A DNA stretch of 47,142 bases. It comes from an uncultured Prevotella sp. Lineage in GTDB: Bacteria; Bacteroidota; Bacteroidia; Bacteroidales; Bacteroidaceae. The stretch is taken from contig CAJOLE010000006.1 of the NCBI GenBank assembly GCA_905235325.1, positions 1 to 47,142 of the forward strand, written 5' to 3'. Numbering within the stretch: position 1 is the first letter of the stretch; every line of letters begins with the position of its first letter. The translations under genes were made by a program, and so were the position numbers. Positions 1,720 to 42,044 of the stretch are shown here, piece by piece. The notes under the pieces are model-generated. The model was not told where the DNA came from and made no database searches. It worked only from the letters and a program-made list of their open reading frames with translations.

Positions 1720-1754
1720 AAATTTTGCGGCTTCAAAATTTCTCAGTAATTTTG
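1720..1754 (+). promoter_or_regulatory. Promoter of the DUF5686 gene, with inverted repeat over the -33 box
   Basis: TTTG at 1724-1727, a 19-nt spacer and TAATTTTG at 1747-1754 form a full Bacteroidetes promoter. AAATTTTG (1720-1727) and CAAAATTT (1734-1741) are a perfect 8-bp inverted repeat overlapping the -33 box; it could be an operator or a weak terminator for rpoD. The predicted start of transcription falls at or within a few bases of the GTG start codon at 1760. Confidence 0.6.
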
Positions 1755-1759
1755 TCGTC

Positions 1760-10470: not shown

Positions 10471-12405
10471 CTATTCAATAACGGCACACCAACCGCCATT
10501 GCGCACCAGGTGGAGCTTCAGCTGAGTCTGCGGCGTCACCTGCTGGTCGACCTTCTTGTAGTCGACGGCGATGCGGTGGGCATTGCGGCCATCCTGGAAG
10601 ATGGTGGCGCGGCCTGACTTCGACAGGAAGTCGAGCGAAATGCTGAGATCCTGCGACTTGTCGCCCGTGATGGCACCGATGAACCACTTCTGGCCCTTGC
10701 GCTTGGCCACTACATAGTAGTCGCCAGCCTTAGCGGCGAGCACACGGGTGTCGTCCCACGTGGTGGGTACGGAGGAGATGAAGCGCGTACACTCATCCTC
10801 GCGCAGATAGCGCGTCGGGCTGTCGGCCAGCATCTGCACGCCGCTCTCGAAGCAGACGTAAAGGGCCATCTGGTAGGCACGCGTTCCGCCGCCCATCGGC
10901 ATGGAGCCGGTGCCGCGGTTGTCCTCGGGCTGGGCACTCTGCATGGAGCCGGGGGTGAAGTCCATCGGGCCGACGGCATTGCGCATGAAGGGCAGCCAGA
11001 TGCTGTTGGCAGGCTGGCATCCCCCACCCTGCTCCATGCCGCGCACGCCCTCGTAGGAGACGAGGTTGGGCAGGCGCTGCTCCAGTCCGGCCGGCTTGAA
11101 CGAGCCGTGGAAGTCGACGAGCAGCTTGTTCTTGGCACATTCGCGGGCCACGCGCTCGTAGAAGTTCACCATCCACTGGTCCGAGTGGTCCATGAAGTCG
11201 ATCTTCAGTCCCTTCACGCCCATGTCGGCATAGTGCTTGATGAGGTCCATGTGCTGCTCAACCGTGAGCCACGAGAGCCAGAGTATGATACCCACGTTCT
11301 TCTTGGCACCGTAGTCCACCAGCTCCTTTACGTCGATTTTGTCAGCATAGGTGAAGGGATCCTGCACGCGCTTGTTCCAGCCCTCGTCCAGGAGGATGTA
11401 CTCCACGCCGTATTTCGAGGCAGTGTCGATGATGTACTTGTAGGTGTCGTTGTTGATGCCCGTCTCGAAGTCTACGCCCCAGACGGTCCAGTGGTTCCAC
11501 CAGTCCCAGCACACCTGGCCCGGCTTGATCCACGACGTGTCGTCGAGCTCGCTCTTGCCGGCGAGCACCACTTCCATCTGGTTCTGGGCGATGTCGGCGT
11601 CGGTGCCGATGACGGCAAAGCGCCAGGGCAGCGTGCGTGTGGCACTGGTGCGGGCTATGCAGGCGCGCTCCTTGGTCACCTTCCAGCCACGGTCGCCACT
11701 GGGTTCCCACGTCTCGGGTGACTTGGGGAAGCGCGCCTCAAAGGCGTTCTGCCCGGTGGGAGCCAGGAACAGGTGGGGATAGTCGCGCACGTCGCTCTCG
11801 GAGAAGAGCACCTTCGTGCCCTTGGGTGTCTCGAAGAGCACGGGCAGATAGGTCATCTCGTCGCCGCTCTTCAGCTCGGCGGTGCTCAGGTGGGTGTAGG
11901 GGTTCTCATACGACGTGCCGAAGCCGCGAGTCTTCGAGATATGGGCGGTGAAAGCCTCGGGCAGGTTCAGCCCCAGACCCTCGCTGACCACGTCGACCTG
12001 GCCCTTACCCTTCTTGACGGTGAAGCGGTAGGCGACACCGTTGTCGTAGGCGCGCAGGTCGAGGCCGATGCCGCCCTTGAAGGCGAGCGACAGCTGGTTG
12101 GCCTTGTTCGGCACCTCGGCATACTTCAGGGGCACGACGGGCTTGACGGTCGCGTCGACCTTCGAGCGCTTGGCACTGCTCAACTTAGGGTTCTGGCCAA
12201 ACTGCTCCTTGCCTACCTGCAGGCTCAGGGCGCAGTTCTTCAGAATCTGTTCGTCACCTTGGAAGACATTCAGCGTGAGTTGCTGGCCCACAGTGACTTC
12301 CAGTTTGACATTTCCGTTGGGAGACGTGAGCGTCTCCGTCTTGTCGGCAGCAAAGGAGCCCAGCGTGAGACTCAGCAATGCCATCATGGTTAAGGATTTC
12401 TTCAT
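10471..12405 (-). CDS. Glycoside hydrolase family 97, retaining type (probable alpha-galactosidase)
   Basis: A 644-residue exported enzyme with signal peptide (residues 1-20, ending SFAA). The N-terminal beta-sandwich covers about 25-280 and the TIM barrel about 290-560, with a C-terminal sheet after it. GH97 contains inverting alpha-glucosidases (SusB) and retaining alpha-galactosidases. Here KIDFMDHSDQ puts an aspartate (D403) at the retaining nucleophile position, and E458 in YEGVRGMEQ lies 55 residues later, the same spacing I recall for the acid/base of the characterised B. thetaiotaomicron retaining enzyme. Alpha-galactosidase activity is therefore favoured but not proven. Its ATG overlaps the upstream gene's stop (ATGA), so it is co-translated with the SGNH-GH125 fusion. 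Confidence 0.9.
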   Translation of the reverse strand: MKKSLTMMALLSLTLGSFAADKTETLTSPNGNVKLEVTVGQQLTLNVFQGDEQILKNCALSLQVGKEQFGQNPKLSSAKRSKVDATVKPVVPLKYAEVPNKANQLSLAFKGGIGLDLRAYDNGVAYRFTVKKGKGQVDVVSEGLGLNLPEAFTAHISKTRGFGTSYENPYTHLSTAELKSGDEMTYLPVLFETPKGTKVLFSESDVRDYPHLFLAPTGQNAFEARFPKSPETWEPSGDRGWKVTKERACIARTSATRTLPWRFAVIGTDADIAQNQMEVVLAGKSELDDTSWIKPGQVCWDWWNHWTVWGVDFETGINNDTYKYIIDTASKYGVEYILLDEGWNKRVQDPFTYADKIDVKELVDYGAKKNVGIILWLSWLTVEQHMDLIKHYADMGVKGLKIDFMDHSDQWMVNFYERVARECAKNKLLVDFHGSFKPAGLEQRLPNLVSYEGVRGMEQGGGCQPANSIWLPFMRNAVGPMDFTPGSMQSAQPEDNRGTGSMPMGGGTRAYQMALYVCFESGVQMLADSPTRYLREDECTRFISSVPTTWDDTRVLAAKAGDYYVVAKRKGQKWFIGAITGDKSQDLSISLDFLSKSGRATIFQDGRNAHRIAVDYKKVDQQVTPQTQLKLHLVRNGGWCAVIE

Positions 12406-14510
12406 ATCTTTTTCTGAACTCTCTTTAGTACATTCAGTTTGCCGTCATCAATGAGCTTCAGGATAAGTTCGCCGAAGAGGGTGTTCTGCCAGGCAAACCA
12501 GGGGCGCGAGTAGTTGGTAGCATCGTCCTTGTTGAACGATTCGTGCATGAAGCCCGTGCCGGCATCGGTGTCGACGAGCATCTGGATGCACTCCTGTATC
12601 TCACGGTTGTCGGTAGAGGTGAAGGCACGCATCATGATGGACATCGGCCACACCATGTCGTAGCCCACGTGGGGGCCGCCGATACCCTCACCGGCCTTGC
12701 CGCGGAAGAAGTAGGGGTTATCCTCGCTGAGCACGTAGCGGCGGGTGTTCTGGTAGATGGGGTCCTTCACGCTGACATCGCCCAGATAGGCCATGGCGAG
12801 CAGCGAGGGCACGTTGGCATCGTCCATCAGGTGGTGGTTGCCGAAGCCGTCGCACTCGAAGGAATAGATCTTGCCGTACTTCGGGTGGTCGTAGATGGCA
12901 TACTGCTTCAGGGCTGTCTCAACCTCGTCGGCCAGTGCCTTGCACTCTGAGGCCAGCTGCGTGTTCTTGTTGACCTTCGTCAGGATGTCGGCTGCCTTGC
13001 GCAGAGACGTCACGGCGAAGAAGTTGGAGGGAACGAGATAGAGGAAGACCGTGGCATCGTCGCTGGGACGGAAGGCCGAGGCAATGAGTCCGCAGGGCTT
13101 CACGGGGTTGCCGTAGCCGCCGTGGCTCATGGTGTCGTACTGCTGGGCCGTGGTGCGCTGGAAGTGGTAGGGACCGTGGTCGGTCTTGCGCTGCTGCTCG
13201 CGGAAGGTCTTCAGCACGGCCTTGACGGCATTGGTCCACAGGTCGGTCTTGAAGATGGAGTCGTCGCCCGTCAGCAGCCAGTACTGATAGGCCAGGCGGA
13301 TGGGATAGCAGAGCGAGTCGATCTCGTACTTGCGCTCATGCAGGAAGGGCTTCATGTCTGTGTGGTCGCTGGCCCATGCGCTGCCCGTGGGGCCGAAGTT
13401 GAAGGCATTGGCATAGGGGTCGAGCACGATGCACTTCAGCTGGCGCAGGATGGTGCCGCGAACCATCTTCTTCACCTTCTCGTCCTTCTTGGCAAACTGC
13501 ACGTAGGGCCACACCTGGGCACCCGAGTCGCGAAGCCACATGGCGTGTATGTCGCCCGTATAGACAAAGGTGTCGTCGTCGCCGTCGTCGGTCACCGAGT
13601 AGTGGACGGTGGTGTCGAGGGTGTTGGGGAAGCAGTTGCCGAACATCCACGCCAGGTAGGGCGCATCCTTCAGCAGCTTCTGCACCTCGGCAATCTTCTT
13701 CTCAATGCTCTCGGCCACAAACAGGCGTTCGCCTTCAGCCGGACGGCGGCTCACGCGGATATTATCGGCCGGAGCCTTGATTTGCTCGGCAAACGAAATC
13801 TGATGCTGGTCCTTGCTCCCTACCAGCTGGTCGATGACGGCCTTCACCATCGGCTCCATCACGGCATAGCCGGCCTCGGTGGGGTGTACGCCGTCGTTCG
13901 TATAATCTGGGTTGAGCGCACGGTCGTCGCCGCTGACCATCTTCGAATAATAGTCGACGAAGGGAATGTTGTTACGCTCGGCATACGCCTTGATGCGGGC
14001 ATTCAGACGAGCAATCTTATCGGCACCGTCGGTGATGCGCGGATTCCACCCGAACTTGGCGGCAGGCAGCGTCGTGGTGAGGATGACCTTCATCCGGTTG
14101 GCACGGGCCAGGTCGACCATCGTCTCGATGTTGGCGAAGGTGCGGTCCTCGTTGTAGGGGCCTGTGTTCTCGGCCACGTCGTTCGTGGCCGTGTTGATGA
14201 CCACCACCTCGGGCTTCAGGTCAATCACGTCCTGGCGGTAGCGCACCACAAACTGGTAGCTGGTCTGGCCGGAGATGCCACGTCCTACATAGCCGTTCTG
14301 GCGGAAGAAGTCTGGGCGCATACGGGCCCAGTTCTCCGTAATCGAGTTTCCCATGAACACGACACGGCGCTGCTCCTGCGGCCATTGTTTCACCTCGGCA
14401 TTCTGCTCTGCATAGCGTCGCAGGTTGCCCCAATCCTTGTCATCGGCCGAAGCCGTAGTGCCCAGCAGCGTAAGTGCCAGGCCTGTCAATAAAACATTGA
14501 GTTTATTCAT
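12402..14510 (-). CDS. Two-domain enzyme: SGNH esterase fused to GH125 exo-alpha-1,6-mannosidase
   Basis: A 702-residue exported protein (signal residues 1-22). Residues about 28-230 are an SGNH/GDSL hydrolase: FMGNSITENW with Ser56, GRGISGQTS block II, NTATND block III, and Asp206/His209 in NDGVHPTEAGY. Residues about 238-702 are GH125: TGDIHAMWLRDSGAQ (D320, D328) and GFMHESFN (E657), the regions that hold the acid and base in the family. GH125 removes non-reducing alpha-1,6-mannose from fungal mannans or N-glycans; the esterase part could remove acetyl groups from the same chain. Both active sites look intact. It is the first gene of a two-gene minus-strand operon with GH97 and is divergent from the next enzyme gene. 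Confidence 0.9.
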   Translation of the reverse strand: MNKLNVLLTGLALTLLGTTASADDKDWGNLRRYAEQNAEVKQWPQEQRRVVFMGNSITENWARMRPDFFRQNGYVGRGISGQTSYQFVVRYRQDVIDLKPEVVVINTATNDVAENTGPYNEDRTFANIETMVDLARANRMKVILTTTLPAAKFGWNPRITDGADKIARLNARIKAYAERNNIPFVDYYSKMVSGDDRALNPDYTNDGVHPTEAGYAVMEPMVKAVIDQLVGSKDQHQISFAEQIKAPADNIRVSRRPAEGERLFVAESIEKKIAEVQKLLKDAPYLAWMFGNCFPNTLDTTVHYSVTDDGDDDTFVYTGDIHAMWLRDSGAQVWPYVQFAKKDEKVKKMVRGTILRQLKCIVLDPYANAFNFGPTGSAWASDHTDMKPFLHERKYEIDSLCYPIRLAYQYWLLTGDDSIFKTDLWTNAVKAVLKTFREQQRKTDHGPYHFQRTTAQQYDTMSHGGYGNPVKPCGLIASAFRPSDDATVFLYLVPSNFFAVTSLRKAADILTKVNKNTQLASECKALADEVETALKQYAIYDHPKYGKIYSFECDGFGNHHLMDDANVPSLLAMAYLGDVSVKDPIYQNTRRYVLSEDNPYFFRGKAGEGIGGPHVGYDMVWPMSIMMRAFTSTDNREIQECIQMLVDTDAGTGFMHESFNKDDATNYSRPWFAWQNTLFGELILKLIDDGKLNVLKRVQKKI

Positions 14511-14785
14511 TTGTATAAAGTTTAAAATATGTACTCATCGAACTTATCTGTGCCCATGAGTCATGCCGATGCCTCTGGCAGAGTCGGCTTTAACGGGCGT
14601 GCATTGCAAGCTGAAGACAGGTACCTGCGGAGACGTGCCGGAAGCAACGGTTTTAGGCGTCGACGCTGTGGAATTAGTAGATTTTGTTTCATTGTTCTTC
14701 AGTTACCTTTTTAGTTATTTGTTGGCAAAATTAAGAAAAATATGCGAGAAAGCCATGCTGATTACCCGGTAAAAAAAGTATTTGA
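14511..14785 (-). other. Intergenic region upstream of the GH125-GH97 operon
   Basis: No gene is supported here. The only minus-strand -7-like box is TAATTTTG at 14733-14726; no -33 box lies upstream of it, so it is a weak promoter candidate and would leave a leader of about 210 nt. The regulatory box at 14786-14798 lies 52 nt upstream of it and could act in both directions. Confidence 0.35.
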
Positions 14786-14837
14786 ACACTTTTGGCAGCA
14801 GAACAAACAAAACTTAGCCGCGATTTTGATACCTTTG
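14786..14837 (+). promoter_or_regulatory. Activator-type promoter A: TTTTGGCAG box plus TACCTTTG
   Basis: ACACTTTTGGCAG (14786-14798) is followed after 31 nt by the -7 box TACCTTTG (14830-14837). There is no TTTG at the usual -33 position. The same 13-mer at the same spacing precedes the gene at 20803, and a close variant precedes the one at 39992. The layout suggests a promoter that needs an activator bound at the box. The transcript leader would be about 20 nt. Confidence 0.65.
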
Positions 14838-14864
14838 CACCATATTAGATTTATTAAGAGTATT

Positions 14865-16796: not shown

Positions 16797-19700
16797 ATGA
16801 AAAAAAGAATCTTTGCCACAATGGCATTGGGAATGACACTCGCCATCATGCCGGCCAGTGCCCAGCAAAAAAAAGCGTACCTCGTATCAGACGCGCACTT
16901 AGACACCCAGTGGAACTGGGACGTACAGGCCACCATCCGCAGTCATATATGGAACACGATGGTGCAGAACTTCCGGCTCTTCGAGCAGTATCCCGACTAC
17001 ATCTTCAACTTCGAAGGAGCCGTGAAGTATGCGTGGATGAAGGAGTACTACCCCTTGCAGTATGAACAACTGAAAAAGTATGTGGCTCAGGGCCGCTGGC
17101 ACATCGCCGGCTCGTCGTGGGATGCCAACGAAGTGATTCTGTGTTCGCCCGAGTCGTGGATTCGCAACATCGCCCTCGGACAGACCTACTACCGTCAAGA
17201 GTTCAACACGGAGGCCACCGATGTGTTCCTGCCCGACTGCTTCGGTTTCCCCTACACCATGCCGACGCTGATGGCCCACTGTGGCCTGATAGGCTTCTCG
17301 AGTCAGAAGCTGATGTGGCGCACGAAGCCCTTCTATGAGGGCAACAAGAAGTACCCGTTCTCCGTGGGTCTGTGGCAGGGCGTCGACGGCAGCAAGGTCA
17401 TGATGGTACACGGTTTCGACTACGGCCACAAATGGAGAGACACGGACATTTCGAAGGACGAGCAGCTCATCCGCGAGATTGGCGAGAGTCCGCTTAACAT
17501 AGCCTACCGCTACTACGGCACGGGCGACATCGGCGGCTCGCCGAACATTTCCTCCGTGCGCGCCTTGGAGAAGGGCATCAAGGGCGATGGCCCGGTGCAG
17601 ATCATCTCTGCCACCAGCGACCAGCTCTACAAGGACTTCCTGCCCTACGACAAGCATCCCGAGCTGCCTGAGTTCCGCGGCGAGCTGACTATGGACGTCC
17701 ACGGCAACGGCTGCTACACGTCGCAGGCTGCCATGAAGCTCTATAACCGTCAGAATGAGCACCTCGGCGATGCCGCCGAGCGCACCGCCGTCATGGCCGA
17801 CTGGCTGGGTGCCTACAAATATCCCATCGACCAGATGACCGAGGCTTGGCAGCGCGCCATCTGGCATCAGTTCCACGACGACGTGACGGGCACCTCTATC
17901 CCCCGTGCATACGAGTTCTCGTGGAACGACGAGCTGCTCTCGCTGAAGGAGTTTGCCGAGGTGCTGACCACCAGTGCCAGCGGCGTGGCTCGCCAGATGG
18001 ACACACAGGTCAGCGGCAAGCCCGTCGTGGTCTACAACAACGAGGCCTTCGACGTGAAGACAATCGCCGAAGCTGCGGTCAGCGGCAATGCCACCGTCAC
18101 CGGCCCCGACGGCAAGAGCGTGCCATCGCAGGTGGTAGACAGGAACGGCAAGAAGACCGTTATCTTTGAAGCCGCCGTACCCGCAACGGGCTTCGCCGTC
18201 TACAGCATCAAGGAGAGCGGCAAGGCTTCCGTGGCCAAGCCGCAGGCGCAGAAGCAGGCCGAGAACAGCCGCTACAAGATCGTCCTCGACGAGAACGGCG
18301 ACATCTCATCGCTCTACGACAAGCAGGCCAGCCGCGAGCTGGTGGCCGACGGCAAGCGCATACGCCTCGTGGTGTTCGACGACTGCACCTCGCGCTCATG
18401 GCCGGCATGGGAAATCATGAAGGCCACGCTCGACAAGGAGCCCGTCGGCATCAAGGGAGCAGACGTGACGTTCGAGAATGGCCCGCTGCGCAAGACGCTC
18501 GTCGTCCGCAAGAAGTACGGCGAGACCGACATCGTCCAGCGCATCCACCTCTACGAGGGAGCGCAGGCTCATCGCATCGACTTCGACATGGAGGTAGACT
18601 GGCGGTCGGAGAACTCGCTGCTCAAGGCTGAGTTCCCCCTGAGCGTCAGCAACCCCGAGGCCACCTACGACATCGGACTGGGCAGTGTGAAGCGCGGCAA
18701 CAACCGCGACAACCAGTTTGAAGTCTACTCGCACGAGTGGACCGACCTCACCGACCGTTCAGGCGACTACGGCGTCACCATCCTCAACAACGCCCGCTAC
18801 GGCTGGGACAAGCCCAACGACAACACCCTGCGCCACTCACTCATCTACACCCCGAAGCCCGGCGGCGGCTACCGCTACCAGGCTCAGCAGGATTTGGGCC
18901 ACCACGTGTTCACCTACAGCCTCATAGGCCACCAGGGACAGCTCAACGAGCCGGAGGCCGTCCGTCAGGCAGCCATCCTCAACAGTCCACTGAAGACCTT
19001 CGTGTCGCCCAAGCACAAGGGAACCCTCGGTCGCACGTTCTCGTTCGTCTCGTCCGACAACAACAATGTGCTTGTCCGTGCGCTCAAGCGTGCAGAAGTC
19101 AGCGACGAGTATGTCGTGCGCGTATATGAAATAGGAGGAAAGGATTCGCAGAACGCCCAGCTGACCTTCGCCGCCGACATCGCTTCGGCAGTCCAGGCCG
19201 ACGGTACCGAGAAGACCATCAACGGCAGCAAGGCCGCTTTCGCCGGCAAAAAGCTCAGCGTGAGCATCAACCCCTACGGTGTGCGCACGTATAAGGTGAA
19301 GCTCCGCAAACCCACGGCTCCCGCTGCTGTCGCCACGTCGCAGCTGCAGCTGGCCTACAACCGCCAGTGCGCTACATTCAATGAGTTCCGCAGCAATGCC
19401 AACTTCGAGGGCGGCTTCAGCTATGCCGCCGAACTGCTGCCCAAGGACGGCCAACTCACCGTGGACGGCATCGACTTCAAACTCGGCGAGCGCGACGCAC
19501 AGAATGGCCTCGCCAGCAAGGGCCAGGCCTTATCCATCAGCCAGCCGGCGACACACCTCTACCTGCTCGCAGCCAGCGACAAGGGCGACCGCAAGGGCAC
19601 CTTCACCTTCAAGGATGCCAAGAACCGCACACTCAGCAGCCCGTCGGCAGCAGTGCCCTTCTACTCAGGATTCGTAGGCCAGTGGGGCCACGACGGCCAC

Positions 19701-20390
19701 ACCAGGGGCTACCTGAAGAACGCCCGCGTGGCCTACGTGGGCACACACCGCCACTCGGCCAGTGCTGACGAGCCCTACGAGTTTACCTATATGTTTATGC
19801 TGAAGCTCGACATCCCGAAGGGAGCCACCACCGTCACCCTGCCCGACGACGAGCACATCGTCATCTTCGCAGCCACGCAGGCCAACGACGAGGAGCGTGT
19901 TGAACCCGCTACGAAACTCTTTGATGCCTCGCTGACGGCCGATACAACGGTCGATGGAGGAGAGGCTGAGGAGGCCGCCATGCCCAACCTGCTGAAGGAT
20001 GCCAAGGTGGTGGCCGTATCCGGCGAGGTGAACGCCCGCGAGGCTGCCTCGATGCTCACCGACGGCAACCCCGACACGAAGTGGTGCGACATCGGCAAGG
20101 CTCCCAACTACGTGGTCTTCGACCTCGGCGAGCAGAAGAAGGTGAGCCGCTGGCGTATGCTCAATGCCGGCAGTGAGAACACCTCCTACATCACCCGCAC
20201 AGCCCTGCTCCAAGGCCGTAACTCAGAGACCGAGGAATGGAAGACGCTCGACATGATCGACAACAACCACACCAACCTCACTGACCGCACGTTCGCCCCG
20301 ACCTCCGTGCGCTATGTGCGTCTCTTTGTCGTCAGCGCCACACAGAGCACTGGTGATGCCGTCCGCATCTACGAACTGGAAATCAACTGA
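16797..20390 (+). CDS. GH38 alpha-mannosidase with C-terminal F5/8-type (CBM32-like) domain
   Basis: A 1197-residue exported enzyme (signal residues 1-22, ending ASAQ). The N-terminal GH38 domain has the zinc site AHLDTQWNWD (H34, D36), the nucleophile D147 in LPDCFGFPYT, and HQFHDDVTGT with H357 and H360-DD. The middle and large C-terminal beta-sandwich domains follow to about residue 1045. Residues about 1055-1197 form a discoidin-like domain: AASMLTDGNPDTKWCD, YVVFDLGEQKKVSRWRM and RYVRLFVV. GH38 cleaves alpha-mannosides such as alpha-1,2/1,3/1,6-linked mannose; the binding domain probably holds the enzyme on the glycan. It is co-transcribed with the preceding glycosidase and ends at a strong hairpin. 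Confidence 0.93.
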   Translation: MKKRIFATMALGMTLAIMPASAQQKKAYLVSDAHLDTQWNWDVQATIRSHIWNTMVQNFRLFEQYPDYIFNFEGAVKYAWMKEYYPLQYEQLKKYVAQGRWHIAGSSWDANEVILCSPESWIRNIALGQTYYRQEFNTEATDVFLPDCFGFPYTMPTLMAHCGLIGFSSQKLMWRTKPFYEGNKKYPFSVGLWQGVDGSKVMMVHGFDYGHKWRDTDISKDEQLIREIGESPLNIAYRYYGTGDIGGSPNISSVRALEKGIKGDGPVQIISATSDQLYKDFLPYDKHPELPEFRGELTMDVHGNGCYTSQAAMKLYNRQNEHLGDAAERTAVMADWLGAYKYPIDQMTEAWQRAIWHQFHDDVTGTSIPRAYEFSWNDELLSLKEFAEVLTTSASGVARQMDTQVSGKPVVVYNNEAFDVKTIAEAAVSGNATVTGPDGKSVPSQVVDRNGKKTVIFEAAVPATGFAVYSIKESGKASVAKPQAQKQAENSRYKIVLDENGDISSLYDKQASRELVADGKRIRLVVFDDCTSRSWPAWEIMKATLDKEPVGIKGADVTFENGPLRKTLVVRKKYGETDIVQRIHLYEGAQAHRIDFDMEVDWRSENSLLKAEFPLSVSNPEATYDIGLGSVKRGNNRDNQFEVYSHEWTDLTDRSGDYGVTILNNARYGWDKPNDNTLRHSLIYTPKPGGGYRYQAQQDLGHHVFTYSLIGHQGQLNEPEAVRQAAILNSPLKTFVSPKHKGTLGRTFSFVSSDNNNVLVRALKRAEVSDEYVVRVYEIGGKDSQNAQLTFAADIASAVQADGTEKTINGSKAAFAGKKLSVSINPYGVRTYKVKLRKPTAPAAVATSQLQLAYNRQCATFNEFRSNANFEGGFSYAAELLPKDGQLTVDGIDFKLGERDAQNGLASKGQALSISQPATHLYLLAASDKGDRKGTFTFKDAKNRTLSSPSAAVPFYSGFVGQWGHDGHTRGYLKNARVAYVGTHRHSASADEPYEFTYMFMLKLDIPKGATTVTLPDDEHIVIFAATQANDEERVEPATKLFDASLTADTTVDGGEAEEAAMPNLLKDAKVVAVSGEVNAREAASMLTDGNPDTKWCDIGKAPNYVVFDLGEQKKVSRWRMLNAGSENTSYITRTALLQGRNSETEEWKTLDMIDNNHTNLTDRTFAPTSVRYVRLFVVSATQSTGDAVRIYELEIN

Positions 20391-20517: not shown

Positions 20518-20712
20518 CGTTTTCTGTCTCTATGTACGCACCATGTCAGTCAATTTTCGCATTAGGCAGAAATGCGGACACTTTAGGCAGGAACCCAATG
20601 CCCGCCGGCGGCGATGAGCCAATGAGGGCATCAGCAAAGGGCGCGAAAGCAGGAATTATCCGTTTTCCGTCAAGTCCGAGGCTTGTATTTCAACAGAGTC
20701 CGGCTAATTGTT

Positions 20713-20764
20713 ACACTTTTGGCAGAATAGCGAACACGCATATACTCGCAAAACATTACCTTTG
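20713..20764 (+). promoter_or_regulatory. Activator-type promoter B: TTTTGGCAG box plus TACCTTTG
   Basis: ACACTTTTGGCAG (20713-20725), then 31 nt, then TACCTTTG (20757-20764). Both the 13-mer and the spacing are identical to promoter A at 14786-14837. No TTTG lies at the -33 position. The leader before the start codon would be about 32 nt. Confidence 0.65.
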
Positions 20765-20802
20765 CAGAAAACTTAAAGCTCAAAGCAATTTATAGTGAAG
20801 AA

Positions 20803-21834
20803 ATGAGAAAGACAGCAGTACTTCTTTTCCTGACGTTGGCCCTGATAGTCAACGCACAGACTCCTGCAATCCCGCCGAGCAAGAAGGCGGTGATGGACGC
20901 CTTCTTGGCCGGCAGGCTGACAAAGGAGTACGTGCCGGCCGCCTTCTTCGTACACTTCGACAGCAACCACAAGACCGGAGAGGCAGCCGTCAATGCCCAC
21001 CTGCAGTTCCTGCAGCAGACCGATGCCGACGTGCTGAAGGTGCAGTTTGAGCAGGGCCAGCGGCGCATTAACGGCCTCGACAAGCAGGCTACATGGGACA
21101 GCATACAGCCCATCGCCGAAGACTACTACCGTCCGACGCTGGAGATTGTCCGCCAGTTACACGAGCGTGTGGGGCACGACATCTACGTGATGCCCACCGT
21201 CTACTCGGCCTACCAGGTGGCGCGCCAGTCGCTGCGCGACGAGAACATCGCCCGCGCTGCCGTTGAGCGCAGGGCCGACCTGAAGCGCGTCATGGGCTAC
21301 TACCAGAAGGCCCTGCTCTGGTTTGTACGCGAATGTAAGAAGGCCGGCATCGAGGCTTTCTATATGCCCACGCAGGGCGGCGAAATGAAGTACAACGCCA
21401 TCGACGGCTTCTTCGACGACATCATCAAGCCCTTCGACCTCGAGCTCATGCAGCTATGCCGGCAGGATGCACGCCTTACCATCCTGCATATCTGCGACTG
21501 GGAGGGCACCTACGACGACCTGAGCAAATATCGCGAATACCCCGGCGACATCGTCAACACTCCGATGCACCTGAACGGCACGCCATTCACGCTGACCGAT
21601 GCCGAGAAGCTGTTCGGGCGGCCTGTCATGGGCGGTCTCAAGAAAGAAGGCATCATCGTCAAGGGCACGGCCGAAGAGGTGGCCAGCACGACCGCCTCCA
21701 CACTGCGCCAGGCGCCCCGCGGGCGCGTCATGCTCGGTGCTGACTGCACCGTTTCGGCAGCCCCCATCGCCAATATCTGCGCCGCCGTGAGCACAGCCCA
21801 TCAGTCAGCCAACAGTAAGAATATCAAACTATAA
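20803..21834 (+). CDS. Exported uroporphyrinogen decarboxylase-like protein
   Basis: A 343-residue protein of the URO-D superfamily (heme HemE and the methyltransferases MtaA/CmuA share this barrel). Family features visible are PTVYSAYQVARQ, QGGEMKY, the HICDWEG strand with HI.D, and a C-terminal GLKKEGIIVKGT ... RVMLGADCTV that resembles the closing strands of the barrel. It begins with a clear export signal (MRKTAVLLFLTLALIVNAQ), which is not expected for heme biosynthesis in the cytoplasm. It lacks the arginine-rich N-terminal motif of true HemE. It starts behind promoter B and is followed 13 nt later by a fasciclin lipoprotein, so it belongs to a glycan-type operon. Substrate unknown. Confidence 0.7.
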   Translation: MRKTAVLLFLTLALIVNAQTPAIPPSKKAVMDAFLAGRLTKEYVPAAFFVHFDSNHKTGEAAVNAHLQFLQQTDADVLKVQFEQGQRRINGLDKQATWDSIQPIAEDYYRPTLEIVRQLHERVGHDIYVMPTVYSAYQVARQSLRDENIARAAVERRADLKRVMGYYQKALLWFVRECKKAGIEAFYMPTQGGEMKYNAIDGFFDDIIKPFDLELMQLCRQDARLTILHICDWEGTYDDLSKYREYPGDIVNTPMHLNGTPFTLTDAEKLFGRPVMGGLKKEGIIVKGTAEEVASTTASTLRQAPRGRVMLGADCTVSAAPIANICAAVSTAHQSANSKNIKL

Positions 21835-21847: not shown

Positions 21848-23920
21848 ATGAGAAACAAGAAAAACATTTTCCACATGCTCGGTGCAGCCATCCTTACCAC
21901 GGCTTGCACCTTCATGACAACAGCCTGTACTGAGGACATCGACGAGTCGAACCTCTACGTCTCGTTAGAAGAGACCATTGAGGACTATCTGTCCACACGA
22001 CCTGAGTTCAGCAGTTTCAACCAAATTCTGCAGCGCGTGGGCTACGACAAAATTCTGTCTGCCTACGGCTCATACACTTGCTTCGCTCCCACGAACGAGG
22101 GTATCGCAGAATATGTGGACAGTCTCTGGAACGACGAAGTAAACATTGTACTGCCCCACAACGGCATGACGCAGCCCGGACTGGAAGGTCTGACAGACTC
22201 GCTCTGCCTCGACATCGCCCTGTTCCACCTCATGTCGTCGAAGACCATCGGCATTGAGATGGACAAAGGCAACACGCTCAACACGATGATGAACCGAGAC
22301 GTCACGTCGAGCATAGGCCCTGACGGAGAAATCCTGCTCAACGGCTATAGCAAGATAACCCTGATGGACGTGGAGCTTCAGAACGGTATCCTGCACGAGA
22401 TTGACCACGCTCTTCGCCGCTCGAACGCACTGGTAGCCCACGAGCTGGAGCTACACCCAGAGTTCAGCCTGTTCAGTCAGGCCCTGCAGATATGCGGACT
22501 GGGAGACACCTTGGTGAAGCAGGTGCGCACGGGCCTTATCATACCAAAGAAGGAAAGCAATGAGTACATACCCAAGGAGTGCCGCTTGGGATACACCATC
22601 CTTGCTGAGACAGACGAAGCTTTCAATCAGGCAGGAATCACCACCCTGGAACAGCTTGCCGACTCAGCCAACGCTTGGTACTCCTCCTGTGCTGCTTGGT
22701 ACGACTATCTGCGCCAAAACGGCATACAGGTCAGTACAGGAACAGACTACCGGAATCCCTGGAACACACTCAATATGTTCGTGCGATACCATATAACAGA
22801 GGTGAAAGTGCCGTATCAGAAACTCTATCAGAGGGATCATGGCGAAGCACCGGAGTTCGTACCAGTGGAGTATTACGAAACGATGTTGCCATACACACTG
22901 TTTAAGGTGAACCGAATAAACAATCAGCCCGTGGCGAACAGATGGGTGGAAAACAGCTCACTCACTGACAAGGTGGCAGCGCTCGCTTCCTCCGAAATAG
23001 CCATCCTGCGCCGCCCAGGTATCGTCATCAGCGATAAAGGCTACTCCTGTGCCAACGGCTACATACACCCCTTGACCAACGGCATCCTGCGCTACGACGA
23101 CGGCGTGCCTCATGGTGTGCTCAACGAGCGTATGCGCTTCGACGTGATGGCCATACTTCACGAAACATTGTCGAACAACATCCGCTGCGCCACTGATGCC
23201 GAACTGCGCGGAATGAACGGCGGCATAACTTGCCACAACGGACGCTTCGATGGCGACGGCACCGTACTCTTGGCCGAGAACTACTGTGGCAACCTCAGGG
23301 TGTACAACGGCAACCAGACCCTGCTCTTCTACCTCTCCGGGCAAGGTGTCTCATGGCAGAACTACCAGGGCGACGAGATGAACTGCGTGGGAGCCTACGA
23401 CTTCGCACTGCGCCTGCCGCCCGTTCCCGCCGGTATGTATGAGGTGCGAATGGGATACTCCGCCAACGGCAACCGTGGCATGATGCAGATTTACCTCGGC
23501 AACACCTCGGATCTGGCCGTCATGACCCCCGTCGACATCCCGCTCGATATGCGTAAAGAACCCAGCGACGCTGATACGGAGACCAATCCGAACCCCTTCA
23601 ACGGCTGGTGCCAGTGGGAGAATTGCGATGACAAGGGCGTGGCCACCGACATCAACATGCGGTACCTCGGCTTCATGCGCGCACCGTTAGGCTGCAGGCT
23701 TTATAACCGAGCCGACAAGTCGGGCACACAGCCTCTGCGCTCGTGCCGTCAGCCTCTGCGCCGTATCCTCTTCAGGCAGAACCTTGATCAGCGTGATTAC
23801 TGGATGCGCTTCAAGACGATGATTCCCGAGAACAAGAACACGCAGTTCCACCTGGAATACATCGAGATTGTCCCGGAGAACGTGTATAACAATGCACAGT
23901 ACGCTGAAGATATGTATTAA
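21848..23920 (+). CDS. Fasciclin-domain lipoprotein
   Basis: A 690-residue lipoprotein. Two cysteines, at TTAC and MTTAC near residues 20 and 27, could be lipobox cysteines; the second is followed by TEDIDESN, an acidic stretch that may act as surface-export signal. Fasciclin motifs occur in two copies: YDKILSAYGSYTCFAPTNEGI with a following DIALFHLM (about 68-125), and a second, more divergent one from about 195 (SLFSQALQICGLGD ... YTILAETDEAF). The C-terminal 200 residues include VPAGMYEVRMGYSANGNRGMMQIYL, a beta-sandwich of the type found in glycan-binding or DUF5108-like proteins. Such lipoproteins are common in Bacteroidetes polysaccharide loci as probable surface glycan-binding or scaffold proteins. 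It closes the operon. Confidence 0.75.
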   Translation: MRNKKNIFHMLGAAILTTACTFMTTACTEDIDESNLYVSLEETIEDYLSTRPEFSSFNQILQRVGYDKILSAYGSYTCFAPTNEGIAEYVDSLWNDEVNIVLPHNGMTQPGLEGLTDSLCLDIALFHLMSSKTIGIEMDKGNTLNTMMNRDVTSSIGPDGEILLNGYSKITLMDVELQNGILHEIDHALRRSNALVAHELELHPEFSLFSQALQICGLGDTLVKQVRTGLIIPKKESNEYIPKECRLGYTILAETDEAFNQAGITTLEQLADSANAWYSSCAAWYDYLRQNGIQVSTGTDYRNPWNTLNMFVRYHITEVKVPYQKLYQRDHGEAPEFVPVEYYETMLPYTLFKVNRINNQPVANRWVENSSLTDKVAALASSEIAILRRPGIVISDKGYSCANGYIHPLTNGILRYDDGVPHGVLNERMRFDVMAILHETLSNNIRCATDAELRGMNGGITCHNGRFDGDGTVLLAENYCGNLRVYNGNQTLLFYLSGQGVSWQNYQGDEMNCVGAYDFALRLPPVPAGMYEVRMGYSANGNRGMMQIYLGNTSDLAVMTPVDIPLDMRKEPSDADTETNPNPFNGWCQWENCDDKGVATDINMRYLGFMRAPLGCRLYNRADKSGTQPLRSCRQPLRRILFRQNLDQRDYWMRFKTMIPENKNTQFHLEYIEIVPENVYNNAQYAEDMY

Positions 23921-23933
23921 AATCATAACTGCC

Positions 23934-23975
23934 GTGGCAGGGAAGAAAGGAGAAAAAGCCTTGATTCCCTGCCAC
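23934..23975 (+). terminator. 10-bp perfect hairpin after the fasciclin gene
   Basis: GTGGCAGGGA (23934-23943) pairs with TCCCTGCCAC (23966-23975) over a 22-nt loop, 13 nt after the stop codon. No T-tract follows, so it may be an mRNA-stabilising hairpin rather than an intrinsic terminator. Confidence 0.5.
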
Positions 23976-24013
23976 AAATGTAACTTTCTGCGACTTTTGC
24001 CATTAGAAAACAT

Positions 24014-24061
24014 TTTGGGCAAGAAACAGTACACATATTACTCAGTTTATTATTAACTTTG
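24014..24061 (+). promoter_or_regulatory. Promoter D, variant of the shared TTTGGCA architecture, without a gene behind it
   Basis: TTTTGGGCAAG (24013-24023) lies upstream of TAACTTTG (24054-24061). Taking TTGGG at 24015-24019 as the box gives the same 34-nt gap as in promoters A-C, with one mismatch. No -33 TTTG is present. No open frame of useful length starts downstream. Confidence 0.4.
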
Positions 24062-24067
24062 CACTGT

Positions 24068-24298
24068 CAAAATAAAAATCCTGCGAGCATACAGGATTTC
24101 CGACGAAAGGAATTAGTCTTATTAAGGTAGAAAGACAATCAGGACGAAGAGATACAGGAAAGTATTCTTGTCATACAATAAGAGATAATGGTAGTTTTAG
24201 TTAGTAAATAAGTTTTAGTTAAGTAAGTTAGTAGTTATTAGTTAGTAGTTTTAGCGAAGTTCCCCACATGTGAATGCAGGTGACTTCGCATTTTTTTT
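24068..24298 (+). ncRNA. Candidate 230-nt non-coding transcript
   Basis: Promoter D points into a stretch without coding frames, which ends in a T8 terminator: GCGAAGT (24254-24260) pairs with ACTTCGC (24283-24289), followed by T at 24291-24298. The 3' half (24187-24253) is made of short imperfect TTAGTTAGTA-like repeats. This could be a small RNA, or the orphan leader of a lost gene. Confidence 0.4.
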
Positions 24299-24342
24299 GT
24301 GCCTGCTGTTCGACATTGGTTTGCTGAATACTTTTGCCTGAA

Positions 24343-24489
24343 ACCCGCCGCCTTTCGCGCAAGACCCGCTGCCTTTTGGCCAAAAACCGCCGCCTTTTGC
24401 GAAAGACCCGCCGCATTTCGCGCAAGACCCGCCGCCTTTTGGCCAAAACCCGCCACCTTTTGCGAAAGACCCGCCGCTTTTTGAAAATT
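24343..24489. repeat. Seven 21-bp tandem units with a 63-bp higher-order period
   Basis: Units start at 24343, 24364, 24385, 24406, 24427, 24448 and 24469, each opening with ACCCGCCGCCTTT or a close variant. Their tails cycle through three types: CGCGCAAG (units 1, 4), TTGGCCAAA (2, 5) and TTGCGAAAG (3, 6). Unit 7 is degenerate. Because 21 is divisible by three, several frames stay open and encode 7-residue repeats, which I regard as incidental. The core also forms the hairpin at 10214-10279. Confidence 0.85.
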
Positions 24490-24606
24490 CAACGACGTTG
24501 CATACTTCCGTTTTCGCTCTTGCTCCGCTACAGTCCGCAAGCGTCACTTCGGGCCGAGCGATCGCTTTCGTTGTGGTTTTCGTTTTGGTTTTCTTTCTGC
24601 CAACTG

Positions 24607-31817: not shown

Positions 31818-33641
31818 CTATTCTTTATAGACGGGGAGCTTCGGGGCATTGGCGATGACGCTGGGAATGCGCTCGAAGATAGCCTTGATGCGGGCATTGT
31901 CGAACTTCGGCGTACGGTCGTAGTAGTAGATGCCGTTCTTCTCCTGCTCGACGTCGGTAATCTGTGTGTAGCAGAAGCCGACGACGTTGGGGCACTGCTT
32001 CAGGGCGTCGATCTCGTCCTGGAGGATGCGGTAGAAGTCGTCGAGCGTGTCGATGTTGGAGCCGTAGCCCCACGACGTGCCGCGCTCCTCGGGCTTGATC
32101 CAGGGCAGTCCGCCGAACTCGTCGAGCATATAGGGCTGGCCGTCGTACTTAGCGAGGTAGTTCTTGTCGCCCTGATTGCGGTAAGGCTCGCGACCCTTGC
32201 GGAAGGAGAGCTGGTCGATAAGTTTCTGCGGGTCGCGCTCGTAGTTGTGTACAGCCCAGATGTCGGTGCGCACATGGCCGTCGCCACTGGCATCATTGAC
32301 GGGACGGGTGGGGTCGATGGCACGGGTGATGCGGTAGACATCCTCCATCAGATGGTTATAGACGCCAGTGCCGCTGTTGCCCCACGTCTCGTTGAACGGT
32401 GTCCACGTGACGAGCGACGGGTGGTTTCGGTCGCGCTCCACCAACTCGGTCCACTCAGCAATGAAGTTGCGGGCGGCCAGGTCGTTGTTCACGTTCAGGC
32501 CCCAGGAGGCACTCTCGCCCCAGGTGATGTAGCCCAGCTTGTCGGCCCAGTAGTAGTAACGCTCCTCGAACGACTTCTGATGAAGGCGGGCACCGTTGAA
32601 GCCCACGGCCTTCGACAGCTCGATGTCGCGGCGCAGGGCCTCGTCAGTGGGTGCCGTCCAGATGCCGTCGGGATAGAAGCCCTGGTCGAGGACGAGGCGC
32701 TGGTAGTAAGGCTGGTTGTTCAGGTAGAAGTAGCCGCCGGCCACATGCACCTTGCGCATACCAGCGTAGGAGCTGATCTTGTCGATGACCTTGCCGCCGC
32801 GGCTCACCTCGTAGGTGACATCGTAGAGGAAGGGGCTTTCGGGCGACCACAGCTTGGGCTTCTTGACAGGCAGCACGACCACGGCACCATTGGTACACGA
32901 CGTAGTGGCCACGGCCACCTGCTTCTTGCCGTCGAAGACCCTGACGGTGAGCTTGTTCGTGTTGCTCTCCTTGAAGAAACGAGGATGGACGACGAGCTGC
33001 TGCTGGTCGATGTCGGGCACGGCGAAGACCGACTCCAGGCCCTCGGCATCGACGGGTTCGAGCCAGACGGTCTGCCAGATGCCGGTGGTGCGGGTGTACA
33101 TACAGCCGTTGGAGAAGAGTTCGAAGGCCTGCTTGCCGCCGGTCTGATAGCCGTCGCGCAGGTTGTCCTTCACCCATACCACGAGATTGTGGGTAGAGCC
33201 GGGCCGGGCCTGCTTGGTTATATCGAACGAGAACGACGAGCCGCTGCCGTAGTGGGTGCCCACCTCACGTCCGTCGATGAAGACGTGGGTCTCGTAGTCG
33301 GAGGCACCGAAGTTCAGGCGCACCTGCCTGCCCTCCCACTCAGCGGGGATGCTGAGCGAGCGCTGGTACCACACGGCGGGTATGAAGTCAGTGTAGGCAA
33401 TGCCGGAAAGCTTGCTCTCCGGGCAGAAGGGTACGGTAATCTTCCGGTCGAACGACTTGGCCTCCTGCCACTTGCGCTCCTGTCCGGTGCGGCCGAAGTC
33501 GAAGGCGAAGCTCCATTCGCCGTTCAAATTCTGCCAATCGGCACGCTCAAACTGCGGGCGTGGATATTCTGCACGTGGAAGTGCATAGGCTGTGCCCATC
33601 GTCAACAGCAGGGCAATCGCGGTGATGATTGTCTTTTTCAT
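31818..33641 (-). CDS. Glycoside hydrolase family 2 (beta-galactosidase/glucuronidase-like)
   Basis: A 607-residue exported GH2 enzyme (signal residues 1-20, ending AYA). The sugar-binding domain (about 35-195, WYQRSLSIPAEW, YETHVFIDGREVGTHYG) and the immunoglobulin-like domain (about 200-290) precede the barrel. The acid/base is E418 in TWTPFNETWG and the nucleophile E508 in MLDEFGGLPW. It is compact, without C-terminal accessory domains. The exact sugar (galactose, glucuronic acid or mannose) cannot be fixed; the DEFGG nucleophile motif is found in several GH2 subfamilies. It sits 25 nt behind the LacZ fusion gene, so it shares the GH76 transcript. Confidence 0.88.
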   Translation of the reverse strand: MKKTIITAIALLLTMGTAYALPRAEYPRPQFERADWQNLNGEWSFAFDFGRTGQERKWQEAKSFDRKITVPFCPESKLSGIAYTDFIPAVWYQRSLSIPAEWEGRQVRLNFGASDYETHVFIDGREVGTHYGSGSSFSFDITKQARPGSTHNLVVWVKDNLRDGYQTGGKQAFELFSNGCMYTRTTGIWQTVWLEPVDAEGLESVFAVPDIDQQQLVVHPRFFKESNTNKLTVRVFDGKKQVAVATTSCTNGAVVVLPVKKPKLWSPESPFLYDVTYEVSRGGKVIDKISSYAGMRKVHVAGGYFYLNNQPYYQRLVLDQGFYPDGIWTAPTDEALRRDIELSKAVGFNGARLHQKSFEERYYYWADKLGYITWGESASWGLNVNNDLAARNFIAEWTELVERDRNHPSLVTWTPFNETWGNSGTGVYNHLMEDVYRITRAIDPTRPVNDASGDGHVRTDIWAVHNYERDPQKLIDQLSFRKGREPYRNQGDKNYLAKYDGQPYMLDEFGGLPWIKPEERGTSWGYGSNIDTLDDFYRILQDEIDALKQCPNVVGFCYTQITDVEQEKNGIYYYDRTPKFDNARIKAIFERIPSVIANAPKLPVYKE

Positions 33642-33666: not shown

Positions 33667-39992
<6,326 letters not shown>

Positions 39993-40019
39993 ATTTACGT
40001 TGTAAGTTTTTTACGCTTA

Positions 40020-40066
40020 CAAAGGTAACAATTAACATGAGAGGCATTGTTCCTTTCCTTGCCAAA
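40020..40066 (-). promoter_or_regulatory. Activator-type promoter C: TTTGGCA box plus TACCTTTG
   Basis: On the minus strand TTTGGCAAGG begins at 40066; after TTTGG (40066-40062) come 34 nt and the -7 box TACCTTTG (40027-40020). This spacing is the same as in promoters A and B, and GAACA follows the box at the same offset as in B. No TTTG lies at -33. The box is 27 nt behind the stop of the secreted GH13 gene; the leader to the GH76 start is about 20 nt. Confidence 0.65.
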
Positions 40067-40092
40067 TTTGTAAAGATACAGGCTTTTCGCCA

Positions 40093-42018: not shown

Positions 42019-42044
42019 ATTTTCAGTTACCAATTATCAATTCT

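What the first reader, a model, noticed from the sequence alone, without database searches (positions are those of the whole stretch)
14786..14837. A TTTGGCA box at fixed distance from TACCTTTG links three separate glycan operons
ACACTTTTGGCAG is found 31 nt before TACCTTTG at both 14786-14837 and 20713-20764. TTTGGCAAGG stands at the same distance (TTTGG, 34 nt, TACCTTTG) at 40066-40020 on the other strand. A near match (TTGGGCA, 34 nt, TAACTTTG) is at 24015-24061. None has a TTTG -33 box, unlike the tRNA promoter in this window. GAACA follows at the same offset in the copies at 20.7 and 40.0 kb. The three genes behind it are a GH-D-like/GH38 operon, a UroD-like/fasciclin operon and the GH76 operon. 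This looks like the binding site of an activator of a dispersed alpha-mannan regulon; the regulator is not in the window. A Crp-like global regulator is an alternative.
Basis: partly seen in the sequence, partly recalled or inferred. Interest (0 to 1): 0.8.

Follow-up and report, generated by a model that had tools for sequence, protein, structure and literature searches.

The report
Shared sensor switch for glycan genes
Four copies in this window and six elsewhere in the same, likely Prevotella-group, genome of one short DNA pattern stand at a fixed distance before a promoter box, half of them in front of sugar-chain-degrading enzyme genes, and they are likely the landing sites of one membrane sensor protein that is predicted to switch these scattered genes on together, probably when mannose-rich glycans are present.

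Summary
In detail: TTTGGCA-N32-TAnnTTTG at 14791, 20718 and 40066(-), a near copy at 24015, none in shuffles. The box is part of a longer element, nACAnn-TTTGGCA-N9-ACA-N20-TAnnTTTG, whose two ACAs lie 21 bp apart. Ten such promoters stand out in the genome; five precede glycoside hydrolase genes or operons (GH38, GH76, GH92, GH2, GH28). A 21-bp direct repeat is the published architecture of hybrid two-component system (HTCS) sites (PMC3878776). One HTCS gene adjoins a site on contig C2. Only five of 397 other genus genomes hold a close relative of it; all five have sites beside it, strong in three (before GH92 and GH125 genes), weak in two. A matrix built only from other genomes' sites returns the four window sites; nothing else in the window comes near. 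Best reading: binding sites of this HTCS, an activator of a dispersed, probably alpha-mannan, regulon; a new member of a known kind. GH76 orthologs elsewhere lack the site. The 24.0 kb site precedes no ORF and may drive a small RNA. Nothing was tested at the bench.

The parts
14784..14839 (+). activator site plus promoter: ACA 14786-14788, TTTGGCA 14791-14797, ACA 14807-14809, -7 box TACCTTTG 14830-14837
   Evidence: relatives-only matrix 30.4 bits
14865..16772 (+). first gene behind the 14.8 kb site, 635 aa from the ATG at 14865; no Pfam match (scanned from the upstream ATG at 14742), no credible PDB relative
16797..20390 (+). GH38 alpha-mannosidase with F5/F8 type C domain, probably second gene of the 14.8 kb operon
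   Evidence: Pfam; a 64% identical protein in G423 has its own site
20711..20766 (+). activator site plus promoter: ACA 20713-20715, TTTGGCA 20718-20724, second ACA 20734-20736, -7 box 20757-20764
20803..21834 (+). URO-D-like protein (weak Pfam match, 24.0 against cut-off 23.9 bits)
21848..23920 (+). fasciclin-domain protein; 76% identical paralog on contig C23
24008..24063 (+). activator site plus promoter with no ORF behind it: ACA 24010-24012, TTGGGCA 24015-24021, ACA 24031-24033, -7 box 24054-24061; highest R1 score in the genome
24062..24303 (+). candidate noncoding transcript; hairpin 24254-24289 followed by T8, terminator-like
   Evidence: no ORF with ATG, GTG or TTG start over 17 aa, though one start-less frame is open for about 42 codons; hairpin -16.4 kcal/mol, z -3.79; the fixed-rule terminator scan found none; inferred
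40018..40073 (-). activator site plus promoter: ACA 40071-40069, TTTGGCA 40066-40060, second ACA 40050-40048, -7 box 40027-40020
37629..39992 (-). GH76 (endo-alpha-mannanase family) enzyme with CBM35 and ricin-like domains, first gene behind the 40.0 kb site
   Evidence: Pfam
33667..37632 (-). GH2 beta-galactosidase-type enzyme, probably same operon
   Evidence: Pfam; overlaps the GH76 gene by 4 bases
31818..33641 (-). GH2 enzyme, probably same operon
   Evidence: Pfam
12402..14510 (-). GDSL lipase-GH125 alpha-mannosidase, divergent from the 14.8 kb site, without a recognisable site on its own strand, although its orthologs have one
   Evidence: Pfam; window scans; orthologs
10471..12405 (-). 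GH97, next gene after GH125, no site of its own here; orthologs in G424 and G293 have one
   Evidence: Pfam

Best explanation
The TTTGGCA boxes are likely the upstream half of tandem, 21-bp-spaced binding sites for one hybrid two-component system (HTCS), which is predicted to bind as a dimer just upstream of the TAnnTTTG promoter box and to recruit RNA polymerase to ten scattered promoters, four of them in this window. Shown by sequence: the element nACAnn-TTTGGCA-N9-ACA-N20-TAnnTTTG, its ten copies, the lack of a TTTG -33 box, and its occurrence beside relatives of one HTCS gene in other species. Inferred: the HTCS encoded on contig C2 (17793-21917 +) senses an oligosaccharide in the periplasm through its propeller domain; its kinase phosphorylates the fused receiver; the AraC-type domain then binds the two ACA-containing half-sites on one face of the DNA. 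The promoter-proximal half-site takes the place of the missing -33 box, so transcription depends on the activator (class II geometry). The signal is probably alpha-mannan oligosaccharide, because orthologous HTCS genes lie near sites in front of GH92 and GH125 genes (and a susC-type gene in G362), with GH76 in the same cluster.
For: (1) Element: 3 matches in the window against 0 in shuffles. The refined pattern has 8 genome matches at up to one mismatch against 0 for the reversed pattern; across 398 genus genomes, own included, own has 8 and the next highest 4 (G334, two of them one repeat). (2) The upstream ACA was not used to select the nine core sites and is present in 8 of 9. (3) R1, trained on the ten sites, scores them at 31-38 bits and its next own-genome match at 16 (150 of 1494 candidates scored). 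(4) 21-bp direct repeats are the published HTCS site architecture (PMC3878776; abstract, passages and one section seen). (5) Only 5 of 397 other genus genomes have a close relative of the C2 HTCS, and sites lie beside it in 5 of 5 (best 33.1, 31.2, 28.3, 13.3 and 12.0 bits). Controls: best 4.8 in 126 kb of GH76 loci, best 13.9 in about 100 kb of own non-target loci. (6) 23 of 80 HTCS loci of named genomes have a site of at least 14 bits, against 0 of 80 with the matrix reversed (29 against 8 at 8 bits). (7) At 20.6 bits or more: 9 of 14 HTCS-bearing genomes against 0 of 14 genus genomes without it (Fisher 2.9e-4). (8) Sites precede likely orthologs of window genes or of other site-bearing own genes: GH38 64%, GH97 75% and 65%, GH125 69-82%, GH92 68%, the C23 protein 77%. 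(9) A matrix from 19 sites of other genomes finds the four window sites at 27.6-33.5 bits; next best in the window 4.7. (10) Domains of the C2 protein: Reg_prop, Y_Y_Y, HisKA, HATPase_c, Response_reg, HTH_18.
Against: No binding, expression or growth data. The genome holds 20 HTH_18 matches in 19 frames, among them a second HTCS on C128. G273 and G130 sites (13.3 and 12.0 bits) are below the best background hit (13.9). The G130 match has an insertion; without it the count is 8 of 14. The 14- and 20.6-bit thresholds were chosen after seeing scores. Five carriers have no match of 20.6 bits (G273, G427, G428, G429, G430). Pattern-selected loci outside HTCS neighbourhoods hold hits of 30.3 (L123, in G149), 21.1, 19.0 and 18.2 bits, and exact matches to the short pattern occur in at least four genomes without a close HTCS relative (G001, G334, G374, G385); the second exact match of G293 scores only 4.3 bits. 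DNA-binding-domain identity does not correlate with best site score over 73 HTCS loci (rho 0.03). The nearest relative (L220, 64% in the sensor) has only reversed-orientation cores next to the HTCS. The window's GH125-GH97 genes have no site on their strand. No SusC gene with a site was found in this genome (82.7% complete), and only some targets are mannan enzymes. The 19 sites of the relatives-only matrix had themselves been found with the own-genome matrix; on 134 kb of own non-target loci that matrix reaches 16.3 bits, and the C2:16120 site scores only 18.9 with it. GH76 orthologs elsewhere lack the site: 0 of 27.
Confidence: 0.78

Rival explanations
1. The sites belong to a different AraC-type regulator of this genome (the C128 HTCS or one of the shorter AraC proteins), and the association with the C2 HTCS reflects only that HTCS paralogs bind similar DNA.
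For: 20 HTH_18 matches in the genome; related sites occur beside HTCS genes with only about 30% sensor identity; no correlation of DNA-binding-domain identity with site score; some strong sites in genomes without a close C2-HTCS relative.
Against: The C128 HTCS locus (8.0 of 8.4 kb scanned) holds no site above 8 bits. Five of five genus genomes with a close C2-HTCS relative have sites beside it, two of them weak. The genes behind the strong ones are likely orthologs or family members of genes of the own regulon or window.
Confidence: 0.12
2. A Crp-like global regulator (Cur/BT4338 type) binds the box during carbon limitation.
For: Cur binds promoters of carbon utilization genes in Bacteroides (PMC10294740, passages).
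Against: The element reads as a direct repeat, not an inverted repeat; that Crp-type dimers bind inverted repeats is recalled. Sites are enriched in few genomes and track one HTCS gene, whereas sites of a global regulator would be expected genus-wide. The Cur consensus itself was not seen.
Confidence: 0.04
3. A chance set: the first three matches are coincidence enlarged by searching for more.
Against: 0 in 100 shuffles, 8 against 0 control, the unselected ACA, recovery by a matrix without own-genome sites, conservation in other species.
Confidence: 0.02
4. The 24.0 kb copy is an orphan promoter left after loss of a gene, not a small-RNA promoter.
For: The paralogous C23 locus has the same order, fasciclin then a site about 90 bp later, but with a protein gene behind it. 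No RNA family matches. The region is unique in the genome. One start-less frame is open for about 42 codons.
Against: No relic of the C23 or C134 proteins is found behind it. The site is the highest-scoring of all ten. A hairpin with T8 ends the stretch. Three other genomes have an ORF-less, weak site (17.1, 13.3, 12.0 bits) next to the HTCS gene, followed by a hairpin and T-run (two of the three folded).
Confidence: 0.45

Closest known systems
HTCS regulons of Bacteroides thetaiotaomicron, in particular HTCS_Man-1, -2 and -3 (BT2628, BT3302, BT3786), PMC3878776 (abstract, passages, one section seen)
   Same: Regulator architecture; tandem direct-repeat sites with about 21 bp spacing; alpha-mannan enzymes as targets; occasional targets distant from the regulator gene
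   Different: Here the sites are spread over six contigs, no susC/susD gene with a site was found in this (incomplete) genome, one site has no ORF behind it, and the box sequence was not compared with the published logos, which are not held
HTCS receiver/DNA-binding-domain control motif S/CHIP (PMC11253607, abstract and passages)
   Same: The C2 HTCS has the corresponding stretch in its receiver domain
   Different: It reads MHIP, outside the S/C consensus; the passages name BT2391, BT2628, BT3302 and BT3786 among HTCSs that deviate
Bacteroidota housekeeping promoter TAnnTTTG with TTTG at -33 (recalled)
   Same: The -7 box (9 of 10 sites TAnnTTTG, one TTACTTTG)
   Different: No TTTG at -33; the proximal ACA half-site lies about there instead
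FopS small RNAs of B. thetaiotaomicron (PMC11697453, start of abstract and passages)
   Same: Noncoding RNAs tied to glycan foraging; the passages mention a susCD target and growth on Man9GlcNAc2
   Different: No Rfam match to the 24.0 kb stretch and no direct comparison with FopS was made; here the RNA would be under HTCS control; unproven

Membership tests
HTCS-controlled regulon | Regulator is one polypeptide with periplasmic propeller sensor, histidine kinase, receiver and AraC-type DNA-binding domain | tested here: met
   Pfam on the 1375-aa C2 protein: Reg_prop, Y_Y_Y, HisKA, HATPase_c, Response_reg, HTH_18
HTCS-controlled regulon | Sites are direct repeats spaced about 21 bp (PMC3878776) | tested here: met
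   ACA and ACA 21 bp apart, both complete in 8 of 10 own sites (C2:16120 lacks the first, C45 reads ACC at the second); ACA/ACA (mostly GACA/GACA) in the GH92-side sites of relatives. Outside ACA the two halves differ (TTTGGCA in the first only)
HTCS-controlled regulon | Sites lie near the regulator gene and its orthologs | tested here: met
   Own C2 site 1.6 kb from the HTCS; 5 of 5 genus relatives, two weak; 23 of 80 named HTCS loci against 0 of 80 control
HTCS-controlled regulon | Regulon includes a susC/susD pair | tested here: inconclusive
   In G362 a site precedes a TonB-plug (SusC-type) gene followed by susD; in G424 a protein with nearly the same N-terminus (no Pfam run); none found in the own genome, which is 82.7% complete
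HTCS-controlled regulon | The phosphorylated DNA-binding domain binds the box and activates transcription | not testable with these tools
   needs gel shift and expression data
HTCS_Man group | Targets are alpha-mannan or N-glycan enzymes | tested here: inconclusive
   GH92, GH125, GH76 and susC/D around the G362 HTCS; own targets GH38, GH76, GH92 but also GH28, GH2 and a GH51-type gene
HTCS_Man group | Phylogenetic clade of BT2628, BT3302 and BT3786 | not tested
   those sequences were not fetched; no tree was made
Crp-like (Cur) regulon | Inverted-repeat site (recalled) | tested here: not met
   element reads as a direct repeat
ECF sigma factor promoter | -10/-7 element differs from the housekeeping box (recalled) | tested here: not met
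   TAnnTTTG kept in 9 of 10 sites, TTACTTTG in the tenth

The most novel reading that the evidence does not exclude
The same sensor also switches on a small noncoding RNA: the ORF-less site at 24008-24063 drives a roughly 240-nt RNA (24062-24303), and in three other species an ORF-less site next to the HTCS gene drives a roughly 110-140-nt RNA ending in a strong hairpin. The stretches share an unusual AGTTAGT-type repeat. The glycan sensor would then control a feed-forward RNA arm alongside its enzyme genes.
Probability: 0.3. Interest if true: 0.7.

Novelty: new member of a known kind. Interest (0 to 1): 0.5.

Why it matters
It ties scattered glycan-enzyme genes of an uncultured, likely Prevotella-group bacterium to one named sensor, so the substrate of operons of unknown purpose (the 635-aa protein, URO-D-like, fasciclin) becomes testable. 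It also gives a sequence rule for finding HTCS targets outside their own gene clusters in Prevotella and Xylanibacter, and flags a candidate HTCS-controlled RNA.

Tried and rejected
Short pattern with two mismatches: 72 own matches against 43 in the control, too noisy to use. Own hits with one mismatch to the short pattern that lack the downstream ACA (PfkB-, gyrB- and other genes: C1, C17, C26, C27 twice, C99, C124) were dropped as chance. Of the seven 2-mismatch hits to the refined pattern, C45 was kept because a GH92 gene follows and C23 because it has the upstream ACA; the other five (C8, C27, C34, C67, C80) stayed out of the model. Conservation in GH76 orthologs: 0 of 27 other-genome loci have the site within about 450 nt upstream; a first reading of those loci ignored strand and was redone. 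Rfam: only tRNAs in the window, nothing credible at 23900-24400. Similarity of the 24.0 kb stretch to the ORF-less stretches of G330 and G273 (scores 33 and 51, best of 200 shuffles 31 each) is confined to low-complexity AGTTAGT repeats and not counted as homology. Gene-relic test behind the 24.0 kb site: nothing better than E 0.69. PDB search with the 635-aa protein: nothing credible. Novelty wording rests on five literature searches; no paper on this regulon was recognised in those listings. One listed paper on PUL transcription in Xylanibacter ruminicola (PMC11107044, listing only) was not opened, and subscription journals are missing from the library. In one search the second control equals the first (both strands were scanned), so it counts once. 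In some searches only 150 of 1360-5356 candidates per genome were scored. One search printed only part of its matches. The relatives-only matrix used 19 of the 27 sites: dropped were two duplicates, five below 19 bits and, by oversight, one of 23.1 bits (L211).

Full report
What was checked. In the genome that holds the window (2.93 Mb, 181 contigs, 82.7% complete) the pattern has 4 matches and its backward control 0. The fourth lies on contig C2 before a GH2 gene. The genus is likely Prevotella in the wide sense: genus-mates G362, G293, G330 and G273 have contigs of the same lengths as named Prevotella or Prevotellaceae records found.

The refined pattern TTGGCA-N9-ACA-N20-TAnnTTTG gives 15 own matches at up to two mismatches against 2 in the control, and 8 against 0 at up to one mismatch. 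Nine sites were taken as core: these eight plus C45 (two mismatches, kept because a GH92 gene follows). They showed a second ACA exactly 21 bp upstream of the first in 8 of 9, a feature that had played no part in selection. A tenth site (C23) was added because it also has it. A sequence-only model of the ten (R1) scores them 31-38 bits, and the next own-genome match scores 16 (150 of 1494 candidates scored). That gap is partly built in, because the model was trained on them.

What stands behind the ten sites: 14.8 kb, a 635-aa protein of no family, then GH38; 20.7 kb, URO-D-like then fasciclin; 40.0 kb, GH76 then two GH2 genes; 24.0 kb, no ORF; C2:16120, GH2, a second GH2-type, a GH51-type arabinofuranosidase and GH97-GH76; C2:4002, a 1183-aa protein of no family; C45, GH92; C141, GH28; C134, a DUF4886, ricin-lectin and GDSL protein; C23, a 222-aa frame without a Pfam match followed by a 1000-aa frame with only a sub-threshold M26-type match. 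So 5 of 10 have a recognised glycoside hydrolase in the gene or apparent operon behind them, and 4 of 10 one of alpha-mannan-related families (GH38, GH76, GH92). Operon extents are inferred from spacing and strand.

Who binds. PMC3878776 (abstract, passages and one section seen) reports that predicted HTCS sites in Bacteroides are direct repeats with an average distance of 21 bp. The own genome has 20 HTH_18 matches, two of them in proteins of about 1370 aa, both full HTCSs by Pfam. One is on C2, 1.6 kb from the 16120 site. Over 398 genus genomes (own included, drawn from a larger group) only G130, G273, G293, G330 and G362 besides own have a relative of it at E 1e-200 or better, 45-54% identical. 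Exact-pattern hits of the earlier genus scan in G362 and G293 turned out to lie about 9.4 kb from those HTCS genes. Scanning the HTCS neighbourhoods with the own-genome matrix found sites beside all five: G362 33.1, 29.6 and 23.1 bits; G293 31.2 and 23.6; G330 28.3, 17.1 and 14.2; G273 13.3; G130 12.0. Controls: best 4.8 in 126 kb of GH76 loci of genus genomes and best 13.9, then 6.6, in about 100 kb of own loci without a known target. The G273 and G130 values are therefore weak on their own, although they are the same stretch as the 17.1-bit site of G330. A second control set, loci fetched because they matched the pattern, holds hits of 30.3, 21.1, 19.0 and 18.2 bits outside HTCS loci, and exact pattern matches occur in at least four non-carriers (partial listing). 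The site is thus not strictly exclusive to carriers of this HTCS.

Wider test. A scan of named genomes with the HTCS sensor alignment returned 80 loci, led by a rumen Prevotella MAG with 64% identity; four of the 80 are apparently the records of G362, G293, G330 and G273 again. 23 of 80 contain a site of 14 bits or more, 0 of 80 with the matrix read backwards; at 8 bits 29 against 8, at 12 bits 25 against 1. Many sit 130-250 bp upstream of the HTCS gene on the opposite strand in Alistipes and others, in the form GTACTTAAATGGCATGAAATCGTAC. Best site score does not correlate with DNA-binding-domain identity over 73 loci, so the box looks like a family trait of these HTCSs rather than private to the closest orthologs. 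Whole-genome R1 scans of 14 HTCS carriers and 14 genus genomes not listed as carriers gave 20.6 bits or more in 9 of 14 and 0 of 14 (highest control 19.8; Fisher 2.9e-4). The threshold was set after seeing the scores, and the G130 match is gapped. Carriers without such a match: G273, G427, G428, G429, G430.

Orthologous promoters. 19 fetched loci hold 27 sites of 12 bits or more (none in L334 and L342); 24 have an ORF behind them and 19 of these match a protein of the own comparison set. Most of these loci had been fetched because of an R1 hit or the HTCS. The 19 are: seven GH125 genes (69-82% to the window's GH125 protein), two GH97 (75%, 65%), one GH38 (64%), one GH92 close to that of C45 (68%), six further GH92 genes (about 26%), the C23 protein (77%) and one DUF4886 protein (39%). 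In six genomes (two of them nearly identical) the GH125/GH92 divergent region, aligned without reference to the own motif, shows by eye the two sites as its most conserved blocks apart from the promoter boxes. In G422, the genome with the nearest HTCS found, the C23-type site is nearly letter-perfect while the flanks differ. A matrix of 19 sites from other genomes puts the four window sites at 27.6-33.5 bits, with the next window stretch at 4.7, and the other six own sites at 18.9-41.0; 134 kb of own non-target loci reach 16.3. Those 19 had been found with the own-genome matrix, so this is not a fully independent discovery.

Negative result for conservation. GH76 relatives of the 40.0 kb enzyme occur in 28 genomes, own included. 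None of the 27 other-genome loci has the site, and none of those genomes is among the HTCS carriers. One of them, G302, is apparently the same genome as G430 (identical coordinates), which carries a more distant HTCS (L233, 34%). About ten of the 27 show TKATACAWTY at a fixed distance from TAnnTTTG instead, which looks like another regulator at the same position; this was seen by eye and not tested. The window's own GH125-GH97 genes also lack a site on their strand, although orthologs have one.

How it probably works. The HTCS would sense an oligosaccharide, phosphorylate its own receiver, and bind as a tandem dimer with the proximal half-site where the -33 box is missing (10 of 10 sites lack TTTG there, the tRNA promoter has it). 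That would make it a class II type activator. Apart from the -33 count this is inference. Alpha-mannan as the signal follows from the G362-type locus (GH125, GH92, susC-type, susD, GH76) and the published HTCS_Man regulons; it is not shown for this species.

The 24.0 kb site. It is the best-scoring of all ten and no ORF over 17 aa with ATG, GTG or TTG start follows in the next 240 nt, though one start-less frame is open for about 42 codons. A hairpin of -16.4 kcal/mol with T8 follows, although the fixed-rule terminator scan reported none. In G330, G273 and G130 an ORF-less, weak site after the HTCS gene is likewise followed by a hairpin and T-run (the first two folded). AGTTAGT-type repeats are present in all four stretches and found only twice in 220 kb of other own loci. 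An orphan promoter after gene loss is at least as likely, since the paralogous C23 locus has a protein gene at this place, but no relic was found.

Verdict.

Noticed in passing
L179, L182, L183, L188, L190, L192-L196 (GH76 promoters of other genus genomes): A different box, TKATACAWTY or close to it, stands at a fixed distance (about 36 nt after ATACA) before TAnnTTTG in about 10 of 27 GH76 loci that lack the TTTGGCA box; it may be another regulator's site at the same place.
   Followed up: partly
window 40093-47134: Sus-like starch cluster (SusD, CBM26 protein, two GH13) directly upstream of the GH76 operon, with no site of this type.
   Followed up: no
contig C2 near 21920 (L175 about 6030) and L220 6027: Cores of the element in reversed orientation right after the HTCS gene, upstream of GH3 (own) or a GH97-like gene (L220, judged by its N-terminus), in both the own genome and its nearest relative.
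   Followed up: partly
contig C23 38547-40702 (L080): Paralogous locus: fasciclin gene (76% identical to the window's) with a weak site before it and a strong site about 90 bp after it.
   Followed up: partly
L123 (G149:C6:3018-3063, -): A 30.3-bit site in a genome where no close HTCS relative was listed; the regulator there is unknown.
   Followed up: no
window 24340-24490: Degenerate array of CCGCCGCCTTTTGC-like units behind the 24.0 kb stretch, of unknown nature.
   Followed up: no
window about 45230-45330: Short-unit repeat of the type GAGTTTGTGAGTTTATAAGTTTGTGAGTT near a TAnnTTTG match.
   Followed up: no
L215 about 14620-14680, L217, L218: The ORF-less site near the HTCS gene lies in a long inverted repeat (AATTTGTGCCAA...TTGGCACAAATT), which could be two opposed half-sites.
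   Followed up: no
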